From Tolypothrix brevis GSE-NOS-MK-07-07A (GTDB lineage Bacteria; Cyanobacteriota; Cyanobacteriia; Cyanobacteriales; Nostocaceae), in assembly GCA_019358985.1 (NCBI GenBank), contig JAHHIJ010000044.1, forward strand, positions 1 to 48,420: a stretch of DNA of 48,420 nucleotides, given 5' to 3'. Within the stretch, counting starts at the first letter, position 1. Every line of letters starts with the position of its first letter. Below are positions 7,286 through 37,531 of the stretch, in pieces. A model generated the notes under the pieces. It saw only the letters and a program-made list of their open reading frames with translations. It was not told where the DNA came from and searched no databases. Made by a program: the position numbers and the translations under genes.

Positions 7286-7377
7286 TAGACATCTCCAGAG
7301 TCATAGGTAAAGACGTAGCAGTGCTACGTCTCTACAAGGGTTTGGGGCAACGCATAATTAATTTCTGGACATGTCTA
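7286..7377. mobile_element. 88-bp miniature inverted-repeat element with TA duplication (copy A)
   Basis: The body is 7288-7375, between TA dinucleotides at 7286-7287 and 7376-7377. The terminal repeats are GACATCTCCAGA and the slightly mutated TCTGGACATGTC. The middle holds the modular palindrome (7307-7335, core GTAGCAGTGCTAC). It has the same 88-bp length as the copy at 37442-37529 and is inverted relative to it. The TA flanks and lack of coding sequence suggest movement by an IS630/Tc1-type transposase acting in trans. Confidence 0.85.
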
Positions 7378-13012: not shown

Positions 13013-13402
13013 TTATATCTTTTTAATTGCCAGTTCGATCAAATCTTCAATCTTCTTGATATTTAAATCCCCTGCTAAGTAACCGATACCACGATGTAAA
13101 TGCAGGCGAAATTGCGTTACTAAGGTTTCTTTATCAGTACCTAAATTATCGTTGTAACAACGTTGCTTGAGCGCCAGTAAAAGAATATCAGACATCTCGC
13201 CGCCAAAGACGCGCCAAGTCATTTCCACGTTGCTATCTTGGGGAATTGGTACGGGGGAGGGTATAGTAGGTTCAGCCAGAGAACGACAAAACCCCCAACG
13301 ACAAAGGATGTTCCATTGGTCGATTTTGGTGTTGCGTCTTAGTTTGAGAAGTTGGTCTTTTGCGGTTTGGGAAAGTTTAATACGTTCAATTGGTGTTTCC
13401 AT
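13013..13402 (-). CDS. dndE: DNA sulfur modification protein DndE
   Basis: A 129-residue protein starting METPIERIKLSQTAKDQLLKLRRNTKIDQWN. It continues with LCRWGFCRSLAEP, MTWRVFGGE, and HRGIGYLAGD near the end, which are hallmarks of DndE. In characterised systems DndE is a small basic protein that binds nicked DNA and is required for sulfur incorporation with DndC and DndD. The internal ATG at 13402 is preferred over an upstream GTG-type start at 13480, because the extra 26 codons are encoded by pyrimidine-rich repeat DNA and overlap dndD. It is last of the dndC-D-E run. Confidence 0.9.
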   Translation of the reverse strand: METPIERIKLSQTAKDQLLKLRRNTKIDQWNILCRWGFCRSLAEPTIPSPVPIPQDSNVEMTWRVFGGEMSDILLLALKQRCYNDNLGTDKETLVTQFRLHLHRGIGYLAGDLNIKKIEDLIELAIKKI

Positions 13403-13473
13403 AATGTTGGGGAGGGGGAAAGGGGAATAAAAAGAAGTTTCAGAATTTAACTTGCACAATGCCCAATGCCCCA

Positions 13474-15456
13474 TTACCAAAAATACCCAGGTTGTATGGT
13501 AGTTTGACGGGTAGAGGAGTCGTATTTGAGGAGATATTCACGAGCGATCGCTTCATTTTCTCTGAGTGTTTCAACTTCTTGTTTGCCTATCTCAGTATCC
13601 GTAGATAATAAAATTACTTGATGGCTGGCTGAGGGAAAGTAACGTTCTACTAAGTTACCACGGTGCGAAGAATCTAGTCTCCCAAGTGGTGTATCGATTG
13701 CGACAGGTAAACGGCGTCCGGAGACTCGCGCTAAACCCCAAAGAAAAGCGATCGCTAAAAGTTGTTTTTCCCCAGCGGAAAGTCGATGTTTGGGAACGGG
13801 TTTCCCCTGTAAATCATAAAGCGAAAGGCTGAAAGTATTGGTGTGGATAGCAACACGATGCACTAAATCAGATTTGTGCAGAAGATAGCGGAAACATTCT
13901 GTCACTTCAACTTCTAACTTATTTAACTTTCGCAAAGTTAATTTTTCGCGGAAAATTTTCAGTGTATCTTGGACTTTAGCAGCCGAGTAAATAATATGCT
14001 CTTTATTTTGGCGATCGATATTTTTTTCAGTATAATTTTCTAGCTCTTTTTTCGTATTGCGAATGTTAGCATCTAATTCATCCAAACGGCGTTTTGTTAT
14101 TTCCCAACTTGCTTTAGCTTCAGCAACTTGCTGTTGTGCTTGTTGCAACTCATCAACTAATCTTTGATAATCTTCTGGTGATGCAGCAGTTTGAATTTGT
14201 CTTTCTAAAGTGATAATTTCTTCTTCTTTTTTTTGTAATATATTAAGTTTATTTCCTGCATTATTTTGTGCAGATAGCAAATGGTGATGAATAATATTAT
14301 CTAACTGATGTAATGTTTCCGTATCAGTTAATAGCCAAGGCTGTTCCGTCGTCGCTTTTTCTAAAGATTCATTTTCTTGATTGATAAAATGTTTAATTTG
14401 ATCAACTTTTTCATCACCTAGAGCCAAATTATGAATCAAATCGAGTAATCGTTTATCTCGCGCAACTAATAAATCATGTGCAAATGCAGCTTGTTGAATA
14501 TGAAGTTCTTTTTCTCCTTGGATGTAAGTCTGATTCAGCAAAGGTTCAATTAAAGCCAAAGGTAAAATATCAGCCGCTAATTCACACATTACTTGACGTG
14601 TTTTTTCAGCTGACGCAGTTATTTCTGATTTCTGCTTCTCTAACTGACTGCGTTCTCCAGCGATTTTACCACCTTCAGAAATGAATTTATCAACAACTTC
14701 TTGTTGATGAATTTCAACTTCTTTTAACTTTTCTTGTAAAGACGTTAATAAGAGCGTTTCTGCATCGTATTCTTTTTGTTGCTCTTTTAGCCTATTTTCA
14801 ATTTCCTCTAAATTTGCCAAATATTTAATATCAGCAATTTCTTTGCGTTTGCGATTGACTAATATTTCCAAATCAACTGCTAAACGTTCAGCTAATTCTA
14901 GCCCTAAAAGTCCGCTAATCGCATCAACTACAATCGGTGGTGGTATTTCTTGTTCTGCGAGTTCTTTAACTTGTTCTCCATCAAAGAGAAATAAATTAGA
15001 AATTCCTACTGGGATTAGATTTTCAATATACTCATCCCAAATATTCGCTAAAGCAATATCAAGCCATTCATTCGCATCTAAAATACCTAAATGATCTTTA
15101 CCGTCTTTAGGATTTTTTTCCCAAGTCCGTACCACACGATATTTTACTGGTTTGTCATTTTCAATATGTTCAAAAACTAATTCAATCCGGGTTTTCTCAA
15201 CTGGATCAGTGTGACTATTAACGCATTGAGTCAGAAAATCACTATAGCTAAGATTGCCACGAGTAGAACATTGAGCACGATGTCCATATAAAGCGAGACG
15301 AATCGCATCCATCAGCGTGGTTTTTCCCCCACCATTCATCCCCCCTAAAAGGATGATTGGACGAGAATTTTCATCATCAATTTCTGGATTAAGATTGATG
15401 ACTTGTTTCCCACAGTAGGGACCAAAGTTTTGTAATACGAGTTCAAGAAATTTCAT
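13474..15456 (-). CDS. dndD: DNA sulfur modification ATPase DndD
   Basis: A 660-residue SMC/Rad50-like ATPase. Walker A is GGMNGGGKTT (residues 38-47). A long coiled-coil middle region is followed by the ABC signature LSAGEKQLL (about 560-570) and Walker B LPVAIDTPLGRLD (about 582-594), then a LLSTDTEIG switch. In Dnd systems DndD supplies ATP-driven DNA nicking or remodelling during sulfur insertion, together with DndC and DndE. There is no Cys-rich hook in the coiled coil, unlike the second ATPase at 23825. Length and neighbours match canonical DndD. An 87-bp repeat separates it from dndC. Confidence 0.93.
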   Translation of the reverse strand: MKFLELVLQNFGPYCGKQVINLNPEIDDENSRPIILLGGMNGGGKTTLMDAIRLALYGHRAQCSTRGNLSYSDFLTQCVNSHTDPVEKTRIELVFEHIENDKPVKYRVVRTWEKNPKDGKDHLGILDANEWLDIALANIWDEYIENLIPVGISNLFLFDGEQVKELAEQEIPPPIVVDAISGLLGLELAERLAVDLEILVNRKRKEIADIKYLANLEEIENRLKEQQKEYDAETLLLTSLQEKLKEVEIHQQEVVDKFISEGGKIAGERSQLEKQKSEITASAEKTRQVMCELAADILPLALIEPLLNQTYIQGEKELHIQQAAFAHDLLVARDKRLLDLIHNLALGDEKVDQIKHFINQENESLEKATTEQPWLLTDTETLHQLDNIIHHHLLSAQNNAGNKLNILQKKEEEIITLERQIQTAASPEDYQRLVDELQQAQQQVAEAKASWEITKRRLDELDANIRNTKKELENYTEKNIDRQNKEHIIYSAAKVQDTLKIFREKLTLRKLNKLEVEVTECFRYLLHKSDLVHRVAIHTNTFSLSLYDLQGKPVPKHRLSAGEKQLLAIAFLWGLARVSGRRLPVAIDTPLGRLDSSHRGNLVERYFPSASHQVILLSTDTEIGKQEVETLRENEAIAREYLLKYDSSTRQTTIQPGYFW

Positions 15457-15482
15457 TTTTCAAGATGCTTTAGAAAAATATC

Positions 15483-15569
15483 TTTCGTAGTAAGCGTTTC
15501 AACGCTTATCTTATTTGAAACAATCATGAATATTTTTGATGTTCAGCACTCTTCGTGCCGACTACGAAA
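15483..15569. repeat. Small inverted-repeat element between dndD and dndC
   Basis: TTTCGTAGT (15483-15491) and ACTACGAAA (15561-15569) are perfect inverted ends. Inside is a hairpin AAGCGTT-TC-AACGCTT (15492-15507). The same pattern, TTCGTAGTA plus a stem of different sequence, recurs at 32985-33009 and 42021-42045. It sits in the dndC-dndD spacer of the likely transcript. Confidence 0.75.
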
Positions 15570-15621
15570 ACATTTTAACGATTGTAGGTTTAACCTATAC
15601 TAATTAGGCAACAATCTTATT

Positions 15622-17229
15622 TTATTCACTCTTTTTATTTTGAAATTTCATACTTACCCAAGTTTTCGGTTCTGCTTCATCTGTTAAATCTGTTAACGCA
15701 ACATCTCCTAAAGTTAACTGCTTCACCTTTTCCACATCACCGGAACCTGCTGCTGTTTTTAAATCGCGTTTGTAATGAGCATTTTTTATCGCTTCCTCTG
15801 GAGAGCGGGAACTAGTGTCAAAACATTTCTCTAATTTGTCGTATATTCCCACGCGACGCGACATTTTACGATATTGACGTTCTGTATCCAACAGCTTTGC
15901 CATTAATTCTAAATGCATCCCATCACCTTCACAAATTTCTTCTAACACAGCCCATTCATCACTACCGAGTAGACTATAATCAGCACCGGGACGAGGATCT
16001 GAGAAAACTTCACCAGTTACTTCCATATAAATGCGGGGTAAACTATCATCAAATTCGTGTCTTTCCTCTAGCCAAATGCGACGAATTTCGCTCAGTTCTT
16101 CTGGAGTAATTAGGGTGATATCGCGCATATTTTCTGGGGCTTTACTCCTCAATTGTTGCTCAATAGTTAGGAGTCTTCTTAACCAATATTCTCGCGCTTC
16201 TTTAATATAGGGACCAGGAATAGGCTCAACTGAAATGTCTCCTTCTATATTCCGCTCATATAGTTGGACATCTCCAGTTCTGCGACGAAAATCTCGCCAA
16301 TTACGGTCTTCTGTTTCTATATCTAATTCTTTCCGTAAATCTAAAAGCGGTTGTAACCATTCTTTTTCTTCGTCATTTTGAATCATCGCTTTTAGTGAGC
16401 TATCTTCACTCACTAAAGTGCAAACCCAACAACCAAAACGAGAAGCTCCACAACTAGGGGTTGATGTATCGACAACTAAAGGACATTCATTATCCGCTGT
16501 CGCACCTCTGTACATAGTAAATAAATCTTTGTTGCTGTATCCCCAAGGATTTTCCCATTGCATTAAATAAAGCCAAACTTCATCATTTCGCCAGTCTTCT
16601 ATAGGGCTATAAACTAAAGAGTTTGGTAAATTCATGTTAGGACTAAGATGATCGCGGACTCTTTTCGTTTGCCATTCTTTCATCCTTTTAGCGCGTGATG
16701 AACTTTCAGCTTTCCGAATACCTAAAACAACGATCGCTTCAGTGTTAACCCGAATCACATCTCGAATGAAACTGTTAGATGGACTAATTTTTAAACGTTG
16801 CGTACACCAACGAAATTTCCTTCTTGGTGCCGGATATCCTTTACCGATTAATCCTACCCAAAATGTTTCTTTTAGTTCCGGGTGTAGCAGATGCGGTATC
16901 ATAGGCATCTGTTGTTCTTTTGCCGCAACTTTAATTTGCTCTAAAGATTTGCGTACCCAAACAGAAACATAAGGATTTTCTACAAGGGTATCGGTTGTAA
17001 TTACATGAATCGTCTTAGTCCGCTTGGACAATGGGAGAGATGCGATCGCATTCCAGATTAACTGTAAAATTGTTGTCGAATCTTTACCACCTGAATATCC
17101 AATTACCCAAGGAATGGCATCCAGAGTGTATAATTCTTGTATCTCGACAGTCAATTCTTGGATATTATCCACTAAATCTGCGACTGTACGTACTTGCTCT
17201 CGTTTCTTTTCTGGTTGTGCTGTAGCCAT
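15622..17229 (-). CDS. dndC: DNA sulfur modification protein DndC
   Basis: A 535-residue PAPS-reductase-like enzyme. The PP-loop VIGYSGGKDSTT lies at residues 42-53. Cysteines for an iron-sulfur cluster are visible in RRKFRWCTQRLKISP, DNECPLV, and TPSCGASRFGCWVCT. DndC activates and transfers sulfur to the DNA backbone and takes sulfur from a cysteine desulfurase (DndA or IscS), which is not in this window. An AAGGAG sequence precedes ATG 17229. It is the first gene of the minus-strand dndC-dndD-dndE run and is divergent from dndB. Confidence 0.95.
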   Translation of the reverse strand: MATAQPEKKREQVRTVADLVDNIQELTVEIQELYTLDAIPWVIGYSGGKDSTTILQLIWNAIASLPLSKRTKTIHVITTDTLVENPYVSVWVRKSLEQIKVAAKEQQMPMIPHLLHPELKETFWVGLIGKGYPAPRRKFRWCTQRLKISPSNSFIRDVIRVNTEAIVVLGIRKAESSSRAKRMKEWQTKRVRDHLSPNMNLPNSLVYSPIEDWRNDEVWLYLMQWENPWGYSNKDLFTMYRGATADNECPLVVDTSTPSCGASRFGCWVCTLVSEDSSLKAMIQNDEEKEWLQPLLDLRKELDIETEDRNWRDFRRRTGDVQLYERNIEGDISVEPIPGPYIKEAREYWLRRLLTIEQQLRSKAPENMRDITLITPEELSEIRRIWLEERHEFDDSLPRIYMEVTGEVFSDPRPGADYSLLGSDEWAVLEEICEGDGMHLELMAKLLDTERQYRKMSRRVGIYDKLEKCFDTSSRSPEEAIKNAHYKRDLKTAAGSGDVEKVKQLTLGDVALTDLTDEAEPKTWVSMKFQNKKSE

Positions 17230-17311
17230 TTCTCCTTCCCTGTATAGACACGGGCATTAGTTACCCTCTTTATATGTACTGTATTTATCAGCTTTATTAT
17301 TGTAGAACGTA

Positions 17312-17379
17312 AAGTTTTTAAAAACTTGCCTATATTCAGCGAATTTTATAGAAAACTAGTTTGTATTAACTTTAAAGTT
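17312..17379. promoter_or_regulatory. Two AT-rich palindromes in the dndC/dndB divergent promoter region
   Basis: AAGTTTTTAAAAACTT (17312-17327) and AACTTTAAAGTT (17368-17379) are perfect palindromes, 54 bp apart between centres. The second ends 13 bases before the dndB start. They share AAGTTT/AAACTT-like half sites and are plausible operators. DndB-type proteins repress dnd genes in other bacteria, so autoregulation is possible. AT-rich palindromes can also arise by chance. Confidence 0.45.
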
Positions 17380-17392
17380 TTCAAGAATCAAC

Positions 17393-18979
17393 ATGAGTGA
17401 TAGTACATCTGACATCGCGAGCAAGTATCTAGCAAGGGAAAACAAGGATAAACAGGTATTGGCTTTATTGCTAGAGAAATTCCTGGGGAAAAAGGATCAG
17501 ATTCTCGTCCAAAAAACAGAGATGGGTGGAAGTATCGCTTATGTGGGTTCTGTCACTTTGGAGTGGTTTGCTAGTCGCGTTCGCTTTGCATCTAGTTTAC
17601 CGCTGCTTCAACAAAAGTATAATCCGGAAACCGATAATGTCGAAATTGACGCCGATAGTATTGACGAAATTCGTCAGCGTCCCCTTGATTGGTCACGTCA
17701 ACTTCCCCTAGCGCAGTATTTAGCAGCAAGGACTAATCATAAGTTTCCCCCTGTTTTGGTGGTAATTAACCAACCTTGGGTGGATAATCCGAAAGCTGTT
17801 GAGTGGAATAAACAAGGAAGTGCGACAAAATCGACTATTGATTTTACCCCATTAGATAAAGATGGTAAAGTCGGTTTACTGAACGTTTCCCAAGAGGATG
17901 TAACTATTTATGCACTCGATGGTCAGCATAGACTGATGGGGGTACAGGGTTTGATGGAGTTGATTAAAACTCGCAAACTCCAGCGTTACAAAAAAGATAA
18001 AACTGCTGACGATACTTTTATTACTTTATCTGACTTAATTGAACAGTATCATGTGAACCCAGCTTATCTGCAAAACTTGCCCGCAGAAAAGATTGGGATT
18101 GAATTTATTTGTGCGATCGCAGCTGGAGAAACCCGTGAAGAAGCAAGACGACGGGTGAGATCCATTTTTGTTCATGTTAACTTGATGGCTGCACCTTTAA
18201 CAAAAGGTCAGTTAGCGCAGTTAAATGAAGATGATGGTTTTTCCATAGTTGCGAGAAAAATCGCTGTGACGCATCCATTATTTGAACAAAAGAGCGATCG
18301 CAAACCTCGCGTTAATTGGGATAGTGCAACAGTGGCATCGAAATCAACAGTTTTAACCACCCTGCAAGCTCTGCAAGATATGTCTGGCAGATATTTGGGG
18401 CAAAAATTCCCTATGTGGAAACCCTTAGATAAAGGCTTAATTCCCATGCGTCCAGAAGATGACGAACTTCAAGAGGGAATTAAGGAGTTTGAAAAGCTAT
18501 TTGATTATTTAGGGAGTCTTCCCAGTTATCAGCTTTTAGAAGAAGAGGATACACCACCTCTGCGACGATTTAGCTTTGAGAAAGATGGGGGAGAAGGAAA
18601 TATGCTTTTTCGTCCTGTGGGACAAGTAGCGATCGCGCAAGCTTTGGGAATTTTGGTTTTTCGCAAAGGGTTATTACTCGAAGACATATTTAAGAAGCTT
18701 CGCAGATTTGACCAAAAGGGAGGATTTAGCGGTATGGAGTATCCGCAATCTCTGTGGTATGGGGTTTTGTACGATCCAAATAAAAAGCGGATTCAAGTTG
18801 CAGGACGAGATTTGGCAGCGAAGTTATTAATATATATTCTCGGTGGAATCACAGATCAAATGGAGCGTGCAGAACTTCGCAAAGCTTTGGCGAATGCGAG
18901 AACTGTGGAAAATAAAACTATCAGTTTTGATGGTAAGTTTGTTGAACCAAAGGAAGTAGGACTTCCACCAGTTTTGTAG
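17393..18979 (+). CDS. dndB: DNA sulfur modification regulator DndB (DGQHR domain)
   Basis: A 528-residue protein with the DGQHR motif (YALDGQHRLMGVQGLMEL, Asp at residue 176) that defines the DndB/DGQHR family. Further conserved parts are FVHVNLMAAPLTKGQLAQLNEDDGFSIVAR and WDSATVASKSTVLTTLQAL. Known DndB proteins are DNA-binding regulators that limit dnd expression and modification density. It is transcribed away from dndC, so one control region serves both. No strong Shine-Dalgarno sequence precedes the ATG. It is larger than enterobacterial DndB (about 360 residues), as some cyanobacterial relatives appear to be. Confidence 0.88.
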   Translation: MSDSTSDIASKYLARENKDKQVLALLLEKFLGKKDQILVQKTEMGGSIAYVGSVTLEWFASRVRFASSLPLLQQKYNPETDNVEIDADSIDEIRQRPLDWSRQLPLAQYLAARTNHKFPPVLVVINQPWVDNPKAVEWNKQGSATKSTIDFTPLDKDGKVGLLNVSQEDVTIYALDGQHRLMGVQGLMELIKTRKLQRYKKDKTADDTFITLSDLIEQYHVNPAYLQNLPAEKIGIEFICAIAAGETREEARRRVRSIFVHVNLMAAPLTKGQLAQLNEDDGFSIVARKIAVTHPLFEQKSDRKPRVNWDSATVASKSTVLTTLQALQDMSGRYLGQKFPMWKPLDKGLIPMRPEDDELQEGIKEFEKLFDYLGSLPSYQLLEEEDTPPLRRFSFEKDGGEGNMLFRPVGQVAIAQALGILVFRKGLLLEDIFKKLRRFDQKGGFSGMEYPQSLWYGVLYDPNKKRIQVAGRDLAAKLLIYILGGITDQMERAELRKALANARTVENKTISFDGKFVEPKEVGLPPVL

Positions 18980-22409: not shown

Positions 22410-22883
22410 TTAAGACAGGAATTTACTTAAATCAAATTCCTCTTCTTGTTGTTGTTTATTTGTTCGATCGCAACTTAAAAATAATAAAATGCGCTCTGAA
22501 TAATCAACAGAGCCATGCAATTCATTTTGCAATATTTCTAATCCCCCATTTGCGTATTCTTCAAATATCTGATTGCGTTGCCTTTCATATTCCTCCTCAT
22601 TCAGAGATAAAATTTTTATATCTTGAGTTTCATTAATAGCCAATAACTTTATTAAAATATCATGTCCCATAGAAGCAAAAGACTCTAACCTAATTGGTGA
22701 TGGTTCTCTTTTAGATATTTCCCCTAAAGGAACACGCTTATTATGCTTGGCACCCAAAGCAGCAGCAAAAGCGATCGCATCCGCAAAAGTCTGAAAAGGA
22801 CCCATTGCACCATCAGCCGAAATTAAAGCCTTCACCAACTCAGCCTTATCTTTAGCAACCCTGATTCTGCCAGTTTCAGCCAT
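22410..22883 (-). CDS. DNA phosphorothioation-associated protein 4 family
   Basis: A 157-residue protein. RIRVAKDKAELVKALISADG followed by GPFQTFADAIAFAAALGAKHNKRVPL matches the Dnd system-associated protein 4 family as I remember it. The C-terminal half is helical and charged (YERQRNQIFEEYANGGLEILQNEL), ending QQQEEEFDLSKFLS. Its biochemical role is unknown; it co-occurs with dnd genes. It is at the 3' end of the minus-strand series of helicase, 57-residue protein, ATPase, Uma2 and this gene. The spacer to Uma2 (22884-23028) is filled with short GC-rich repeats. Confidence 0.82.
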   Translation of the reverse strand: MAETGRIRVAKDKAELVKALISADGAMGPFQTFADAIAFAAALGAKHNKRVPLGEISKREPSPIRLESFASMGHDILIKLLAINETQDIKILSLNEEEYERQRNQIFEEYANGGLEILQNELHGSVDYSERILLFLSCDRTNKQQQEEEFDLSKFLS

Positions 22884-23028: not shown

Positions 23029-23582
23029 TCACATCATAAACAAATTATCCACCGGCATTGACCATCCCGGTAATGCCGGTTCAGCTTGCGCTACTTCACC
23101 ACGACCATAGACTTGCGGTTGTTCAGGATTACTTGCACAATATACCCTAATAACCTCTTCTTCGAGTACATCCACATCCCACACAACTAAAGTACCCGCA
23201 GCAAAATAATCAAGACGCTTTGCAGCCATATTTTTTTTGCTGTATCACCATAATCATTTTCACTTCTCACCTCAACCGCAAAAATAGGGGCACCATTGAG
23301 GAACTTACCACCTGTAGCTTTGCCAATGTAAAATGCTGCATCAGGACTTAAAGAACGACGATTAAGAAGATTCACAACAAAACCAACATTATCAGGTAAA
23401 GCATAACCACTCCTTGCCAGACGTTCATAATCCCGCAGACTAGCATAAATTTCACCTCCTGCACGTCCTGGTAAAAATCCGGTTGGAGACATTAGCAGCA
23501 GTTTTCCATTTACAATCTCCGCCTTACAATTGTCAGGTACGAGGTACAAATCTTCAATAGTTGCCTCAGCCTTTATACTCAT
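23029..23582 (-). pseudogene. Uma2-family (DUF820) PD-(D/E)xK nuclease split by a frameshift at an A8 run
   Basis: The N-terminal part (from ATG 23582, with GAGG 7 bases upstream) reads MSIKAEATIEDLYLVPDN, SPDAAFYIGKATGG, then IFAVEVRSENDYGDTAKK. The C-terminal part continues one frame off as MAAKRLDYFAAGTLVVWDVDV, then ends LPGWSMPVDNLFMM. The break falls at A8 in the coding strand (about 23230-23237). One extra A would join the halves into a normal Uma2 protein of about 184 residues. The catalytic Asp and Glu of the nuclease core are on the N-terminal side. It could be a true pseudogene, a sequencing error, or a slippage site. Uma2 proteins are abundant in cyanobacteria and their targets are unclear. 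Confidence 0.85.
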
Positions 23583-23785
23583 AAAATACCTCAGATTAAT
23601 TTGAGATAATTTCAATTTAACAAATGCACTTATCTTACTTCGTCTACTTCGCTACGAGTGCGGTTCGTTTTCCTAAAAAAATACAGCAAGCGATCGCATA
23701 GAATAATAATCTCACGCAGAGGCGCAAAGAATAACTATAGCGGGTTGCATGGCAATACAGAACCTCACACCGACCGTTCCGGACA

Positions 23786-23824: not shown

Positions 23825-25894
23825 TTATCTACCACATTCAACCTCAACAATTTCCGTATACTCAAACTCATTCGGACTTTGCCTAATCAACGCATATCTT
23901 TCCCCATTCAACTCAATATAATCTTGTTCGCAATCAGGTTTAGAAGAATAATAAGTCAACACATATTCTCTCCCTATTCTCTTCGCAATTTCCTCCTCAA
24001 CTTCACCTCTCCATTGCGTCTGAGTCACCAACACAATCAACTGATTTGCTAATTGCGGAATAGTCTTCGCAATTTGCCGGCGATAGTTATTATCCAAACT
24101 ACCAAAAGGCGAATCCATCACTATGGGGAATGTGTTACTATCTGGCATCATTAACATTTTTCTTTCACTCCATTCCCGCACCTTGTCGATAATGCTGCCG
24201 ATAAAAGATAAACTGAGAATTTGATTTTCACCTGTAGAAGCTGCAACTAGCGCTTCCATACCTGTTGTATTTTCTACTAGCGTCAATTCATATTTTTCGC
24301 TGATTTTAGGAATGTAAGGTGTAAAAGAAATTTGACTGAATATCTCTTGTACTCGCTTTTCTAATTGCAAACGAAAGTGATTTTCTTGACGAAACTTAAC
24401 TTCCGTTAATCGATCAATTGCATCCTGGGTAGCAGCAATCCGTCGTTGTGCGAGTGTTTGCTTATCTTCATTCAGCTTCTGTTTAGCAACTTGCTTATTA
24501 AAACCTTCTATTTCCGTTTTCAGATTAGCAATTTGCTGTTGATTTGCACCTTGTTCTAACGTTAATTCTCTAATTTTATCTTCAATTTCATCTAACCGCT
24601 TTTGTAAACTGCGAATTTCTTCACTTGGATCTTTTCGCAAGCGTTCTTGAATAGTATCTAACTCACCTTCAACTTGAGATATAGTTTCCCTTAACTGATT
24701 AATTCTGACTTGTTCTTTATCAACTTCTTCCCAAAACGCGACTGCTTGCTTATCAATTTCATCTACTTGAGCGCTCATCCGAAAAGCTGTTTCTTCTATC
24801 GTTGAAGAACCAGCTTTATCGAGCAAATTTTTCACATTCTCGTGTCGATGAGTTCCGTCGTGTAATTCTGCACCACAAATACAGCGTTTAGAATTGAGTA
24901 AGTCGGTAACAAACTCCCGCGAAATTCCCGCAGTTAATTTACCACGCTGCTTCAAATCTTCAACAATAGTACGAAATTGGCTTGTAGTTGACCATAGTAA
25001 CACCGTATAACCGCGTGTGGAAATAACTTTTTTTAACGCTTCTCTGGTTTGTTTGAGATTTTCTTGGTTTGCTTTTTTCTGGCTTTCTAACTCTTGTCGT
25101 CTTTCTTGAATTTCTTTGGCAGCGCTGAGTTCTCGCAAACGGTTACTTGTCTCTTTTTTAAAAGTATGTTGATATTCTAACTCTTGTTTTATTTCCGTTT
25201 GTCGCTTGATAATGCGCTCAATTTCCCGCTCTAGCTTTTCCTGCTGCCTTAAAAGCTGTTTCGTTTCGGAATTACCGATGAGTTTTAATTCATTGTCTAA
25301 AGTTTTCTTTGCTTCCCCCAAATGCTTGATAGAACGATTTATTACTTCTACCCCTAAAAGCATCTTTGTTGCTTCCGCGATTTCCGCTTTTTTATCAGAA
25401 CGTACTATTTGCTCAATGCGTTCGCCATCAAAGAAAAAATATTGATGTAAATTACTTGGTAAAATCTGATTGATAATATCTTCTGGTTGTTGGAGTGGAA
25501 AATACCAGCGTCCATCATCTCCAGATACTTGCATTAGTAATTCTGTCTTACCAACATCAATATCAGTTGCATTTTTATAAACCCGACACTGACGTTTGAC
25601 ATTGTAGCGTTTGCTGTCATGTTCCCAAGCTACTTCTACCCAACATTCTACAGCTTGACCGATTTCAGCTTCTGCGATCGCTCGCTTATTAACTAACTGC
25701 TCAATTGATGCAAATGCTGCACTAAACTTCTCATACAATACCCATGTAAATGCATTTAGCAGACTGGTTTTTCCCGCACCATTATTACCGTGAATAATTG
25801 TTGTGTTATCAGCCTCACCAACTGCTAAGATGATTTCTGGTGTTTTGCCATAAAAAGAACGAAAGTTACATAGCTTGATTGAAGTCAGCTTCAT
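23825..25894 (-). CDS. Second Rad50/DndD-like coiled-coil ATPase of the island
   Basis: A 689-residue SMC-type ATPase. Walker A HGNNGAGKTSL lies at residues 35-45. YFFFDGERIEQIVRS, a family signature of DndD/AAA15-type ATPases, follows. Long coiled coils flank a Cys/His-rich apex (KRCICGAELHDGTHRHENV, Cys338 and Cys340). The C-terminal lobe has a degenerate signature (STGENQILSLSFIGSI) and Walker B FPIVMDSPFGSLD. It is related to DndD but separate from the dndC-D-E set. The start is ATG 25894, not the longer frame, because the extra 19 codons come from a miniature element. That element also supplies the GGAG ribosome site 7 bases upstream. Likely role: ATP-driven DNA processing with the 57-residue protein and the helicase (inference). 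Confidence 0.85.
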   Translation of the reverse strand: MKLTSIKLCNFRSFYGKTPEIILAVGEADNTTIIHGNNGAGKTSLLNAFTWVLYEKFSAAFASIEQLVNKRAIAEAEIGQAVECWVEVAWEHDSKRYNVKRQCRVYKNATDIDVGKTELLMQVSGDDGRWYFPLQQPEDIINQILPSNLHQYFFFDGERIEQIVRSDKKAEIAEATKMLLGVEVINRSIKHLGEAKKTLDNELKLIGNSETKQLLRQQEKLEREIERIIKRQTEIKQELEYQHTFKKETSNRLRELSAAKEIQERRQELESQKKANQENLKQTREALKKVISTRGYTVLLWSTTSQFRTIVEDLKQRGKLTAGISREFVTDLLNSKRCICGAELHDGTHRHENVKNLLDKAGSSTIEETAFRMSAQVDEIDKQAVAFWEEVDKEQVRINQLRETISQVEGELDTIQERLRKDPSEEIRSLQKRLDEIEDKIRELTLEQGANQQQIANLKTEIEGFNKQVAKQKLNEDKQTLAQRRIAATQDAIDRLTEVKFRQENHFRLQLEKRVQEIFSQISFTPYIPKISEKYELTLVENTTGMEALVAASTGENQILSLSFIGSIIDKVREWSERKMLMMPDSNTFPIVMDSPFGSLDNNYRRQIAKTIPQLANQLIVLVTQTQWRGEVEEEIAKRIGREYVLTYYSSKPDCEQDYIELNGERYALIRQSPNEFEYTEIVEVECGR

Positions 25895-26005
25895 TAGACA
25901 TCTCCAGAAATTAATTATGCGTTGCCCTAAACCCTTGTAGAGACGTAGCACTGCTACGTCTCTGTAGCACTGCTACGTCTCTACCTATGACTCTGGAGAT
26001 ATCTA
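25895..26005. mobile_element. TA-flanked miniature element between the 57-residue gene and the ATPase gene (copy B)
   Basis: The body is 25897-26003 (107 bp), between TA at 25895-25896 and TA at 26004-26005. Ends are GACATCTCCAGA and TCTGGAGATATC. It equals the 88-bp copies plus a 19-bp duplication of the palindrome centre (25937-25984). On the minus strand its first base completes the TAG stop of the 57-residue gene, and its end supplies GGAG before the ATPase ATG. Confidence 0.9.
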
Positions 26006-26176
26006 TTGCACAACTTCCTTGACTATTTTTAATATATCATCATTAATATGGCTGAAACTTTTCTTATCAAGTCTGCTTTTTTCTAGATACCATACCTGCT
26101 CGATTATTTGCCGCACTTCCGCTGGAGCATTGATAATTGGCTCCTGAACATCATCGATATTCGGCTCTTTTGTCAT
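26003..26176 (-). CDS. 57-residue Dnd-island protein, unknown function
   Basis: The reading frame MTKEPNIDDVQEPIINAPAE, VRQIIEQVWYLEKSRLDKKS, FSHINDDILKIVKEVVQ ends at TAG. The stop is formed by the TA duplication plus the first base of the miniature element. Without the element the sequence would read CAATAATGAAG, a TAA stop overlapping the ATPase ATG. That arrangement is typical of translationally coupled partners. The protein looks like an acidic N-terminal tail followed by two amphipathic helices. No family is recognised. It is probably a small partner of the ATPase (inference). Confidence 0.78.
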   Translation of the reverse strand: MTKEPNIDDVQEPIINAPAEVRQIIEQVWYLEKSRLDKKSFSHINDDILKIVKEVVQ

Positions 26177-26713
26177 TTCGATTTTAAAAGAAGTTTTTAT
26201 TCTCTATTTTAACCGTCTCTACTCCTGTACGCGCAGCCTGAAAGCTACTTTTATCGTTATCTTTATTTTCAGGCAAAAAAATAGAAAATTTGCAATTTTT
26301 TGTCAAAAATAGCTTTCTTTTTAGGCTGTTTCCTGATATTATTAGATATAACTAAATAGCCTTGATCATAATGGAGTGGTGGCTCTTTTAAAAATTTCGC
26401 TAGTCCTCCATTATAATAAAATCAATCTCATACTTATTATTATCTCATATTTAGTCCTATTTTTATCGATTTTTTTCTTTTTTTCTAAAAATTTATTTCC
26501 ACGAATTGGTGCAATCATATCATGCCCGTTTAATTAACATAATAAAAACCTACCTAACGTCGTAGAGACGTTCCGTCGGAACGTCTTTACTGGAACGTCA
26601 TATCAAAGGTTATACCGTTTCACAAAAACCTTGATACAAATACAGACTTGTAGAGACGCGAAATTTCGCGTCTCTACAAGATTCATATGTATCGCTATTA
26701 ACGTGAAATGGTA
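26177..26713. other. Intergenic region rich in repeats between helicase and 57-residue genes
   Basis: No gene is supported. In order: an AT-rich part; an inverted repeat ATAATGGAG (about 26369-26377) with CTCCATTAT (about 26405-26413), separated by about 27 bases; the CATGCCCGTTTAATTA-type repeat (about 26520-26553); two modular palindromes; and a second miniature element whose end abuts the helicase stop. Confidence 0.6.
26562..26590. repeat. Modular palindromic repeat, TTCC core
   Basis: GTAGAGACG-TTCC-GTC-GGAA-CGTCTTTAC. The second arm has one change (TCTTTAC). It follows the CATGCCCGTTTAATTA repeat directly, as the copy at 33070 does. Confidence 0.9.
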
Positions 26714-26714
26714 T
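26612..26714. mobile_element. Second type of miniature inverted-repeat element
   Basis: ATACCGTTTCAC (26612-26623) and GTGAAATGGTAT (26703-26714) are inverted ends with one mismatch. They enclose a modular palindrome with a different core (26650-26677: GTAGAGACGCGAAA/TTTCGCGTCTCTAC). On the minus strand its boundary overlaps the TAA stop (26714-26716) of the helicase gene. Confidence 0.75.
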
Positions 26715-28186
26715 TAGATATCCAATAAATCGTATCTCTTTTGTAAAGCAAGTAATTTCATCCTTGCTTCACCGGCATTATCAGCTAAATCAGCAAACTC
26801 AACAAAGCGACGCAATTCTTTTCTTAACAAATTGCGCTCAACTTCTAAAGTGTTTCTGTCAAGTTCTGGTGGAAGCACAATCATATCAAATATAGTAGCG
26901 CGTTCTTTACCTGGGTGAGGGCGCAAAACTCGTCCTCTTCTCTGAATAAATTGGCGGGGATTTCCTGAACTTGCCAAAATAACAGCAGTTTGAATGGCGG
27001 GAATATCAACTCCTTCATCTAAGCAGCGAATTGCTACCAAACCTTGCAAATCACCGCTTTCAAATTGATGACGCAAACTTTCTCTTTCTTGTAAAGGCGT
27101 TTTTGCGGTGTATGTGCTGACTCGATACCCTAATTCTCCTCCTAATATTTTGGCGACTGCTTTAAGTTGGTGTAACGATGAATGTCCCTCTTCTTGTGCG
27201 GCATCACTACAATAGAAAAGGGTGTGAGTAGTTTCACGACGAGTTAGCATTAATCCACGCAAAGCGTTTAATTTATTTTCTGCTGCACCAATTAATCTTG
27301 CCCGTTGCATTAACAAAGGTTTTAAATCTTCGTTGCCTTCAAAGTCACCTAAATCTAAATTTTCTCGTTCTCGATACAGTAATGCTCGTCCTATTCTTTT
27401 AGTTAATTTTAAGTAAGCAATGCTTTCTGCTTCTGTTAACTCTACTAAAATTGGATGATAGAGATAATGTACTAACGCACCTTGAGAAATTGCATCCTTT
27501 AAAGTGAATTCTGGCTGAAGAACGGCACCAAAGTAATTAAATAAAGATTGAGTGCCACCATCATCAAAATATCTTTCTGGGGTAGCAGAAAGAGCGAGTC
27601 GTAAACCCACGCGGCGTGGTAAACTTTCTTCCAACTTAGGTGCGCCTAAGTTATGTGCTTCGTCACCAATAATCAAAGTCTTTTCGGGAAAGTACTTGAG
27701 TTGAGAACCAAAGCCATCACCAATTAATGTGGAATTGGTAGTCACAATCGTGAGAAAGGATTGGGAACCAGAACGCACATTATAAAGTTGGGTAGAAAGT
27801 TGACTTTGCCACGTTCGTAAATCTTCAAAAGCTAAAATGGGCTGCAAGTTGAATTTTTCACATTCTCGCGCCCATTGGGTGACAAGATGACGAAAGGGAC
27901 ACACCACCAACAAAACTTGCAAGTTAATTTGTTTGTATAACTCGCAAGCGATCGCTAATGCTGTAATCGTCTTACCACTACCAGTAGCCATCTTCAATGT
28001 ACCTCTGCCGTTGTTGGCAAACCAAGACTCAATAGCTTGTCGTTGATATTGGCGTAATTGCAGATATTGGGGCATTTTGGGGCATCCTGGTAGTGGTTGA
28101 GTTTGATAATTGCCCTTACTTTCGCCGGCAAATGGTTTTTTCAGCTTGAAAGTGGGCAATTTCTCAACTCGTGATGTCAGGTACAT
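26714..28186 (-). CDS. DEAH-box helicase of the DNA phosphorothioation restriction type
   Basis: A 490-residue superfamily 2 helicase. Motif I is MATGSGKTITALAIA, motif II IIGDEAHN, motif III LALSATPERYFDDGG. The C-terminal lobe has AIRCLDEGVDIPAIQTAVILASSGNPRQFIQRRGRVLRPHPGK (motifs V and VI). Overall layout and linkage match the family annotated as DNA phosphorothioation system restriction enzyme (dnd_restrict_1). No nuclease domain is visible, so cutting would need a partner, perhaps the ATPase or Uma2 genes downstream (inference). Start at 28186 or at Met38 (MPQYLQLRQYQRQAIESW); the latter begins the conserved part. It follows lexA by 109 bases on the same strand. Confidence 0.85.
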   Translation of the reverse strand: MYLTSRVEKLPTFKLKKPFAGESKGNYQTQPLPGCPKMPQYLQLRQYQRQAIESWFANNGRGTLKMATGSGKTITALAIACELYKQINLQVLLVVCPFRHLVTQWARECEKFNLQPILAFEDLRTWQSQLSTQLYNVRSGSQSFLTIVTTNSTLIGDGFGSQLKYFPEKTLIIGDEAHNLGAPKLEESLPRRVGLRLALSATPERYFDDGGTQSLFNYFGAVLQPEFTLKDAISQGALVHYLYHPILVELTEAESIAYLKLTKRIGRALLYRERENLDLGDFEGNEDLKPLLMQRARLIGAAENKLNALRGLMLTRRETTHTLFYCSDAAQEEGHSSLHQLKAVAKILGGELGYRVSTYTAKTPLQERESLRHQFESGDLQGLVAIRCLDEGVDIPAIQTAVILASSGNPRQFIQRRGRVLRPHPGKERATIFDMIVLPPELDRNTLEVERNLLRKELRRFVEFADLADNAGEARMKLLALQKRYDLLDI

Positions 28187-37440: not shown

Positions 37441-37531
37441 AGACATCTCCAGAAATTAATTATGCGTTACCCGAAACCCTTGTAAAGACGTTCCGCCGGA
37501 ACGTCTTTACGTATGAATCTGGAGATGTCTA
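37440..37531. mobile_element. 88-bp miniature element (copy C)
   Basis: The body is 37442-37529, flanked by TA (37440-37441 and 37530-37531). Terminal repeats are GACATCTCCAGA/TCTGGAGATGTC, a perfect match. The inner palindrome 37482-37510 has core TTCC-GCC-GGAA. It is inserted at the edge of a related element. Confidence 0.9.

What the first reader, a model, noticed from the sequence alone, without database searches (positions are those of the whole stretch)
25895..26005. A miniature element separates two formerly overlapping genes and supplies their stop codon and ribosome site
The element lies between TA pairs. On the minus strand the 57-residue gene ends with TAG made of TA plus the element's first base. 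The ATPase ATG starts just after the other TA, with GGAG from the element end 7 bases upstream. Removing the body and one TA gives CAATAATGAAG, where TAA and ATG overlap. The two genes were therefore once coupled, and the insertion kept both readable. This is direct evidence that the tiny gene is real and belongs with the ATPase.
Basis: partly seen in the sequence, partly recalled or inferred. Interest (0 to 1): 0.82.

Follow-up and report, generated by a model that had tools for sequence, protein, structure and literature searches.

The report
MITE rewired two overlapping defence genes
A tiny jumping element landed exactly in the four-letter overlap between two neighbouring cyanobacterial antiviral-type genes, and by the accident of its own end sequence gave the first gene an equivalent stop signal and the second a new ribosome site, so both proteins stayed unchanged.

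Summary
The element is real but mis-read in detail. It is a 109-bp MITE (25896-26004) of a family whose 30-base end has 121 matches in this genome, flanked by a 3-bp duplication AAT (ATT on +), not by TA. In relatives the empty junction is not TAATG (0 of 88 and 0 of 80 loci). It is a 4-nt ATGA overlap, CAATGAAG in the nearest: 81 of 88 loci (window included), and 78 of 80 in a partly overlapping second set. Of the loci read, only the window and Plectonema radiosum NIES-515 carry the MITE there. Insertion turned pbeB's stop TGA into T|AG (T from the target, AG from the element) at the same codon, kept pbeC's ATG, and put the element's GGAG 7 nt upstream. The 57-codon gene is real: 88 of 99 genomes have it, and the 10 without the ATPase lack it. 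By position and size it is the PbeB-type protein of a CxC-ATPase (PbeABCD-like) system beside dnd genes. Published reporter data suggest a 108-nt gap ends termination-reinitiation. In silico the new GGAG is paired with the left end of the element, next to the pbeB stop; a ribosome terminating there would partly expose it, so coupling may survive by a different, untested mechanism.

The parts
25896..26004 (.). MITE, 109 bp, ends AGACATCTCCAGA / TCTGGAGATATCT
   Evidence: its first 30 bases have 121 matches (up to 3 mismatches, both strands) in the own genome
25893..25895 (.). target-site duplication ATT (AAT on the gene strand), pbeC side
   Evidence: empty sites
26005..26007 (.). target-site duplication ATT (AAT on the gene strand), pbeB side
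   Evidence: empty sites
26003..26176 (-). pbeB-type gene, 57 codons; stop TAG at 26005-26003 (T from target, AG from element)
23825..25894 (-). pbeC-type CxC ABC-ATPase, 689 aa, ATG at 25894-25892, CIC motif at residue 338
25902..25905 (-). GGAG supplied by the element, 7 nt before the pbeC ATG
25995..25998 (-). CUCC in the left end, 5-8 nt after the pbeB stop, predicted to pair with that GGAG
26016..26020 (-). candidate for the ancestral pbeC ribosome site, AAGGA inside pbeB, now more than 110 nt farther upstream
   Evidence: AAGGA or AAGGAG in 54 of 81 ATGA loci
25937..25984 (.). inner palindrome of the MITE (variable core; shorter in Plectonema radiosum NIES-515)
26714..28186 (-). PbeA-type SF2 helicase (TIGR04095), without the first about 240 positions of the PbeA model

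Best explanation
An IS-derived MITE of this genome inserted at AAT|G inside the 4-nt ATGA overlap of pbeB and pbeC and duplicated AAT (shown by empty sites). Its end begins with AG, so T|AG replaced TGA as pbeB's stop at the same codon; pbeC kept its ATG and received the element's outward GGAG at a 7-nt spacing (shown). The insertion itself leaves both proteins unchanged. Termination-reinitiation should no longer work over 108 nt (inferred from published E. coli and Haloferax measurements). Most likely working, about 0.45: GGAG is closed in the stem formed by the two element ends, and a ribosome terminating at the pbeB UAG covers the opposite strand of that stem and frees it, so pbeC translation still depends on pbeB translation (inferred from modelling only).
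For: ATGA overlap in 81 of 88 loci, the window and L032 being the two with the element. Window flanks joined at the site differ from G002 (Hassallia byssoidea) by 3 of 79 bases, ungapped. Exact 3-bp duplication in 26 of 29 paired copies. Co-occurrence of pbeB and pbeC. CxC motif in 80 of 80 pbeC loci. Coupling lost over short gaps: PMC10666635, passages. GGAG P(unpaired) is 0.0003 or less free, and 0.25/0.54/0.68/0.61 with a ribosome covering 9 nt past the stop. pbeC dN/dS between the two carriers is 0.105.
Against: Pairing of MITE ends is automatic, so the stem is no sign of selection. No expression data. With cover of 0 nt past the stop the GGAG stays closed, with 6 nt its first two bases do (0.03, 0.05), and in the Plectonema version it opens only partly. 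dN/dS mixes time before and after insertion, and pairs without the element give similar values, 0.093-0.126 among the six pairs from G001-G004. In pbeC as a whole the window groups with G003, which has no element, so inheritance is not a simple tree.
Confidence: 0.8

Rival explanations
1. The pair is simply decoupled: pbeC is now translated (or transcribed, from a promoter-like site in the element) independently of pbeB.
For: A promoter-like pair TCTACA-16-CATAAT lies in the element pointing at pbeC; CATAAT lies in the 30-base end searched. GGAG at 7 nt is a usable site on its own.
Against: 9 of 12 matches is weak: the 1.1-kb region gave 8 such sites, shuffles a mean of 4.1. By eye the -35-like part is not kept in the Plectonema copy. 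In a full-length transcript GGAG is predicted to be paired.
Confidence: 0.35
2. The insertion damaged the operon and the system is drifting to loss in the two carriers.
For: Published: reporter gaps of 22-38 nt cut reinitiation by 80-100%. One relative, G046, has a pbeC relic with three stops and no pbeB.
Against: Both frames intact in both carriers; pbeC dN/dS 0.105 and pbeB 3 synonymous to 1 non-synonymous change between them.
Confidence: 0.12
3. One reading: TA-target element, uninserted junction TAATG.
For: A TA does flank each end by letter.
Against: TAATG in 0 of 88 and 0 of 80 loci. Two copies flanked by AAA on both sides have no TA. The empty sites fit a 3-bp duplication.
Confidence: 0.01
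4. The element is ancestral at this site and was lost precisely in the other genomes.
For: Site pattern in pbeC groups the window with G003, which lacks it.
Against: Only 2 of 88 loci have it. The 30-base end has over 100 matches only in the two carriers among 59 genomes (121 and 129; the next is 15; G003, half complete, 14). In pbeB, -118 to -51, all five sites at which the window pairs with one other genus member pair it with the other carrier, which fits exchange of a short haplotype.
Confidence: 0.03

Closest known systems
Cyanobacterial MITEs (Nezha; MITEs of Anabaena PCC 7120)
   Same: Small, non-coding, inverted ends, many copies
   Different: Their ends and targets were not compared here: I saw only citations and mentions of them. 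This family has AGACATCTCCAGA ends and a 3-bp, mostly A/T duplication.
Rickettsia palindromic elements in frame within genes (PMC10969869, passages seen)
   Same: A small repeat tolerated in or beside coding sequence
   Different: Those add residues in frame; this one leaves both proteins unchanged
Termination-reinitiation gene pairs with ATGA overlap (PMC6728339, listing with start of abstract; PMC10666635, passages)
   Same: The uninserted pbeB/pbeC pair has the commonest overlap, -4 nt
   Different: The window's pair is 108 nt apart, beyond the reach measured in those reporters
PbeABCD / CxC ABC-ATPase systems (PMC6459918, PMC10853773, passages)
   Same: Helicase, small protein, CxC ATPase in order A-B-C, near dnd modification genes
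   Different: The helicase lacks the N-terminal part of the PbeA model; no PbeD/DndE-type gene among the downstream ORFs scanned; this small protein is well conserved, whereas PbeB is described as rapidly evolving and mostly disordered; no PADLOC model names it PbeB

Membership tests
MITE | short, no transposase, inverted ends, direct duplication, many copies | tested here: met
TA-target (IS630/mariner-type) MITE | TA duplication | tested here: not met
   3-bp duplications, AAA-flanked copies, empty sites
IS5-type (ISL2 group) derived MITE | parent IS with DDE transposase and same ends | tested here: inconclusive
   One broken 784-bp copy (L155) with a DDE_Tnp_4 match and ends AGACATCTCC / GGAGATGTCC; flanks AAT and ATT are not an exact repeat. 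The ISL2 target ANT is recalled.
PbeABCD / CxC system | PbeC is a CxC ABC-ATPase | tested here: met
   CIC at 338; CxC in 80 of 80 named loci; absent from the window's DndD
PbeABCD / CxC system | small PbeB gene between pbeA and pbeC | tested here: met
   By position and size only: 57 codons (66 aa in H. jeotgali, PMC6459918). pbeA seen within the fetched stretch upstream in 59 of 88 loci. PADLOC: one of 18 members has a weak PbeC hit, E 0.0037; ten scanned singly have none
PbeABCD / CxC system | PbeA with HKD nuclease fused to SF2 helicase | tested here: not met
   490 aa; aligns to positions 241-681 of a 682-position PbeA model; that the missing part is the HKD domain is inferred
PbeABCD / CxC system | PbeD (DndE-type) gene beside pbeC | tested here: inconclusive
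   The two larger ORFs downstream (157 and 142 aa) give no PbeD or DndE match; smaller ones were not scanned. The DndE at 13013-13480 lies with dndC and dndD
ATGA termination-reinitiation pair | stop and start overlap or lie within about 20 nt | tested here: not met
   108 nt in the window; met in 81 of 88 loci

The most novel reading that the evidence does not exclude
A transposable element can exchange one kind of translational coupling for another in a single step: its end supplies the stop of gene 1, and the two ends form a stem that hides the ribosome site of gene 2 until gene 1's ribosome reaches that stop. MITEs with T|AG and GGAG in their ends would then be ready-made coupling modules for operons.
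Probability: 0.3. Interest if true: 0.75.

Novelty: new variant of a known kind. Interest (0 to 1): 0.5.

Why it matters
It is a natural experiment: in one genus the same two defence-type genes have an ATGA overlap in three species and a MITE spacer in two, with both frames intact. Comparing them would show whether fixed PbeB:PbeC coupling matters. It also shows that a 57-codon gene that no Pfam, NCBIfam or PADLOC model named in these scans accompanies the CxC ATPase in 88 of the 89 genomes, of 99 searched in one order, that have it.

Tried and rejected
TA/TAATG model: rejected by empty sites. Family libraries for the 57-aa protein: Pfam, window protein only, none; NCBIfam and PADLOC, window protein and 18 relatives, nothing meaningful. 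Solved structures: nothing for PbeB below E 0.58, one weak Rad50 match for PbeC. Parent IS: two transposase families tried in the own genome; of the 15 loci they gave, only the broken L155 copy has both ends around the transposase match. Survey of the 29 paired copies for start or stop codons at their ends: only the window copy has an ATG frame of 50 or more codons directly behind it (two others have a TTG frame 5 and 10 nt away); three have T|AG closing a frame of 60 or more codons (window; L134, 180 codons; L019, a tandem repeat and probably no gene). These 29 are not a random sample: window, 28 of the 30 loci (the other two lie in the window) and 14 chosen stretches. Empty sites of other copies: 4 of 14 joined sites were searched in G001-G004. 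I read two: L134 fits a 3-bp duplication in G002; L021 (6-bp repeat in the window's genome) stayed unclear. The other two were not read. Papers on MITEs with translational coupling, overlapping genes, termination-reinitiation or ISL2: searches returned 0 papers in the held library, which lacks most subscription journals. Elhai et al. 2008 is not held. HEARO target preference: one search gave nothing usable.

Full report
What is there. On the minus strand the order is pbeA-type helicase (28186-26714), a 57-codon gene (26176-26003) and an ABC-ATPase (25894-23825). The element is 25896-26004, 109 bp, with ends AGACATCTCCAGA and TCTGGAGATATCT, an inner palindrome and a very stable fold. The 13-bp end, up to 1 mismatch, has 353 matches in the 6.5-Mb genome against 5 for the reversed control. 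The first 30 bases have 121 matches, up to 3 mismatches, control 0.

How it is flanked. In 26 of 29 copies that I could pair, the flanks are an exact 3-bp duplication: AAT or ATT in 21, five others. One copy showed 6 bp and two none. Two copies have AAA on both sides, so TA is not the target. The 29 came from the window, 28 of the 30 loci (the other two lie in the window) and 14 chosen stretches, so they are no random sample.

The empty site. I searched 99 genomes (the window's own plus 98 relatives) with the 57-aa protein: 88 have it. I read all 88 junctions. In 81 the stop and start overlap as ATGA. Two have the MITE (window; G004). One has 783 nt (G083) and one 81 nt (G092) of other sequence. 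In three the ATPase is not adjacent (G032, 16 kb away; G067 and G095, about 130 kb). TAATG occurs in 0 of 88. That collection may leave out the window's own genome. The genus holds five genomes in the searched set; the other four are all read here.

What the insertion did. Empty GTG CAA TGA / ATG AAG became GTG CAA T|AG ... TCT|A ATG AAG. pbeB still ends after the same glutamine; pbeC still starts at the same ATG. The window's flanks joined at the site match G002 at 76 of 79 bases, G003 at 74 and G001 at 71. The ribosome site that pbeC has in its relatives, AAGGA inside pbeB (AAGGA or AAGGAG in 54 of 81; AAGA in 22; none in 5), is now too far away, and the element's GGAG takes its place at a 7-nt spacing.

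The tiny gene. It is present in 88 of 99 genomes and the ATPase in 89 at E 1e-60 or better. The ten genomes without the ATPase lack the small gene; the one odd genome, G046, has an ATPase relic with three stop codons. Across the 65 orthologs of 57 codons, compared without gaps, third positions differ about twice as often as first and 2.5 times as often as second (56445, 27637 and 22109 differences over all pairs, start codon left out). No library scanned names it. The ATPase carries a CIC motif, conserved as CxC in 80 of 80 named loci and missing from the window's DndD, so it is the CxC type, PbeC. Its PADLOC label alone would not prove that: PbeC models also hit the true DndD. Passages of PMC10853773 and PMC6459918 describe a small protein (66 aa in Haloterrigena jeotgali) between PbeA and PbeC, needed for virus protection there. 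The former calls it rapidly evolving and mostly disordered; this one is well conserved (mean column identity 77% over 52 sequences). I call the 57-aa protein PbeB-type by place and size, not by sequence. A pbeA-type gene was seen upstream in 59 of 88 fetched stretches, 40 to 966 nt before it; the other 29 stretches show none, some being cut by contig ends.

Age and inheritance. In pbeC as a whole the window is nearest G003, which lacks the element (95.7 against 93.9% for G004; 20 against 7 two-against-three sites). In pbeB, -118 to -51, all five sites at which the window pairs with one other genus member pair it with G004. A short exchanged haplotype that carried the MITE fits best. Of 59 genomes, 17 have the 30-base end; more than 100 matches occur only in the window's genome and G004 (121 and 129; next G022 with 15; G003, 54% complete, 14; G001 2; G002 2). 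Between the carriers pbeC has dN/dS 0.105, and pbeB has 3 synonymous and 1 non-synonymous change. This includes time before the insertion, and pairs without the element give similar values.

How it may work. PMC10666635 (passages) reports reporter gaps that strongly cut or end reinitiation: in E. coli 38 nt cost 80-90% in two pairs and all in a third; in Haloferax 22 nt ended it in the pair described. So 108 nt should end the old coupling. In the model RNA (element plus 60 nt on each side) the GGAG is paired with CUCC of the other end, unpaired probability at most 0.0003 in both carriers. If a ribosome on the pbeB stop covers 9 nt downstream, the four bases rise to 0.25, 0.54, 0.68 and 0.61 in the window, and 0.34, 0.37, 0.34 and 0.70 in G004; with 0 nt nothing opens, with 6 nt only the last two bases do in the window. 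The CUCC lies 5-8 nt past the stop. So pbeC may still be opened by pbeB's ribosome. This is a model result; the ends of any MITE pair, so it is no proof of selection. Independent initiation and an internal promoter remain open.

Other breaks of the same overlap. A HEARO/IscB element sits there in Anabaena sp. UHCC 0187 (Rfam HEARO 3171-3390 of L200, and a 443-codon frame that looks like IscB, recalled), and a 16-kb element in G032. pbeB's frame stays open in both (the L200 copy gains five codons). Whether insertions are commoner at this junction than elsewhere was not tested; G051 has a break inside pbeC near residue 87.

Noticed in passing
L200 3171-4794 (Anabaena sp. UHCC 0187): A HEARO RNA plus an IscB-like frame sits exactly at the pbeB/pbeC overlap, just before ATGA; HEARO elements are recalled to prefer ATGA, so stop-start overlaps may be natural targets.
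   Followed up: partly
L168 (G032, 16.4 kb): About 16 kb with a tyrosine-recombinase-like frame, several long frames of unknown kind and an IS110-like transposase (by eye, no family search) lies between pbeB and pbeC.
   Followed up: partly
L134 764-853: A second MITE copy landed on a stop codon: a frame of about 180 codons now ends in T|AG from the element; read by eye, Hassallia byssoidea without the element has TAG at this place and one codon before.
   Followed up: partly
window 7287-7376 and 37441-37530: Two further 90-bp copies of the same MITE, with AGT and ATT duplications.
   Followed up: yes
window 13013-18979 and 22410-22883: dndC, dndD and dndE, a likely dndB (by position and look only; no PADLOC match) and a dnd-associated protein 4 gene lie near the pbe genes.
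   Followed up: partly
window 23029-23615: A Uma2-type gene seems split into two overlapping frames (142 and 66 codons); only the first was scanned.
   Followed up: no
window 26647-26680 and 26278-26306: A terminator-like hairpin after pbeA and a promoter-like site before pbeB (consensus matches only) suggest that pbeB-pbeC may be its own transcript.
   Followed up: partly
PADLOC models PDLC02731 and PDLC02740 against window 13474-15456: These two PbeC models outscore the best DndD model (985.6 and 807.4 against 804.4 bits) on a DndD without CxC, so PbeC calls by that library need the motif check.
   Followed up: partly
L155 1315-2098: Broken 784-bp IS with a DDE_Tnp_4 match and nearly the same ends, a possible parent of the MITE.
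   Followed up: partly
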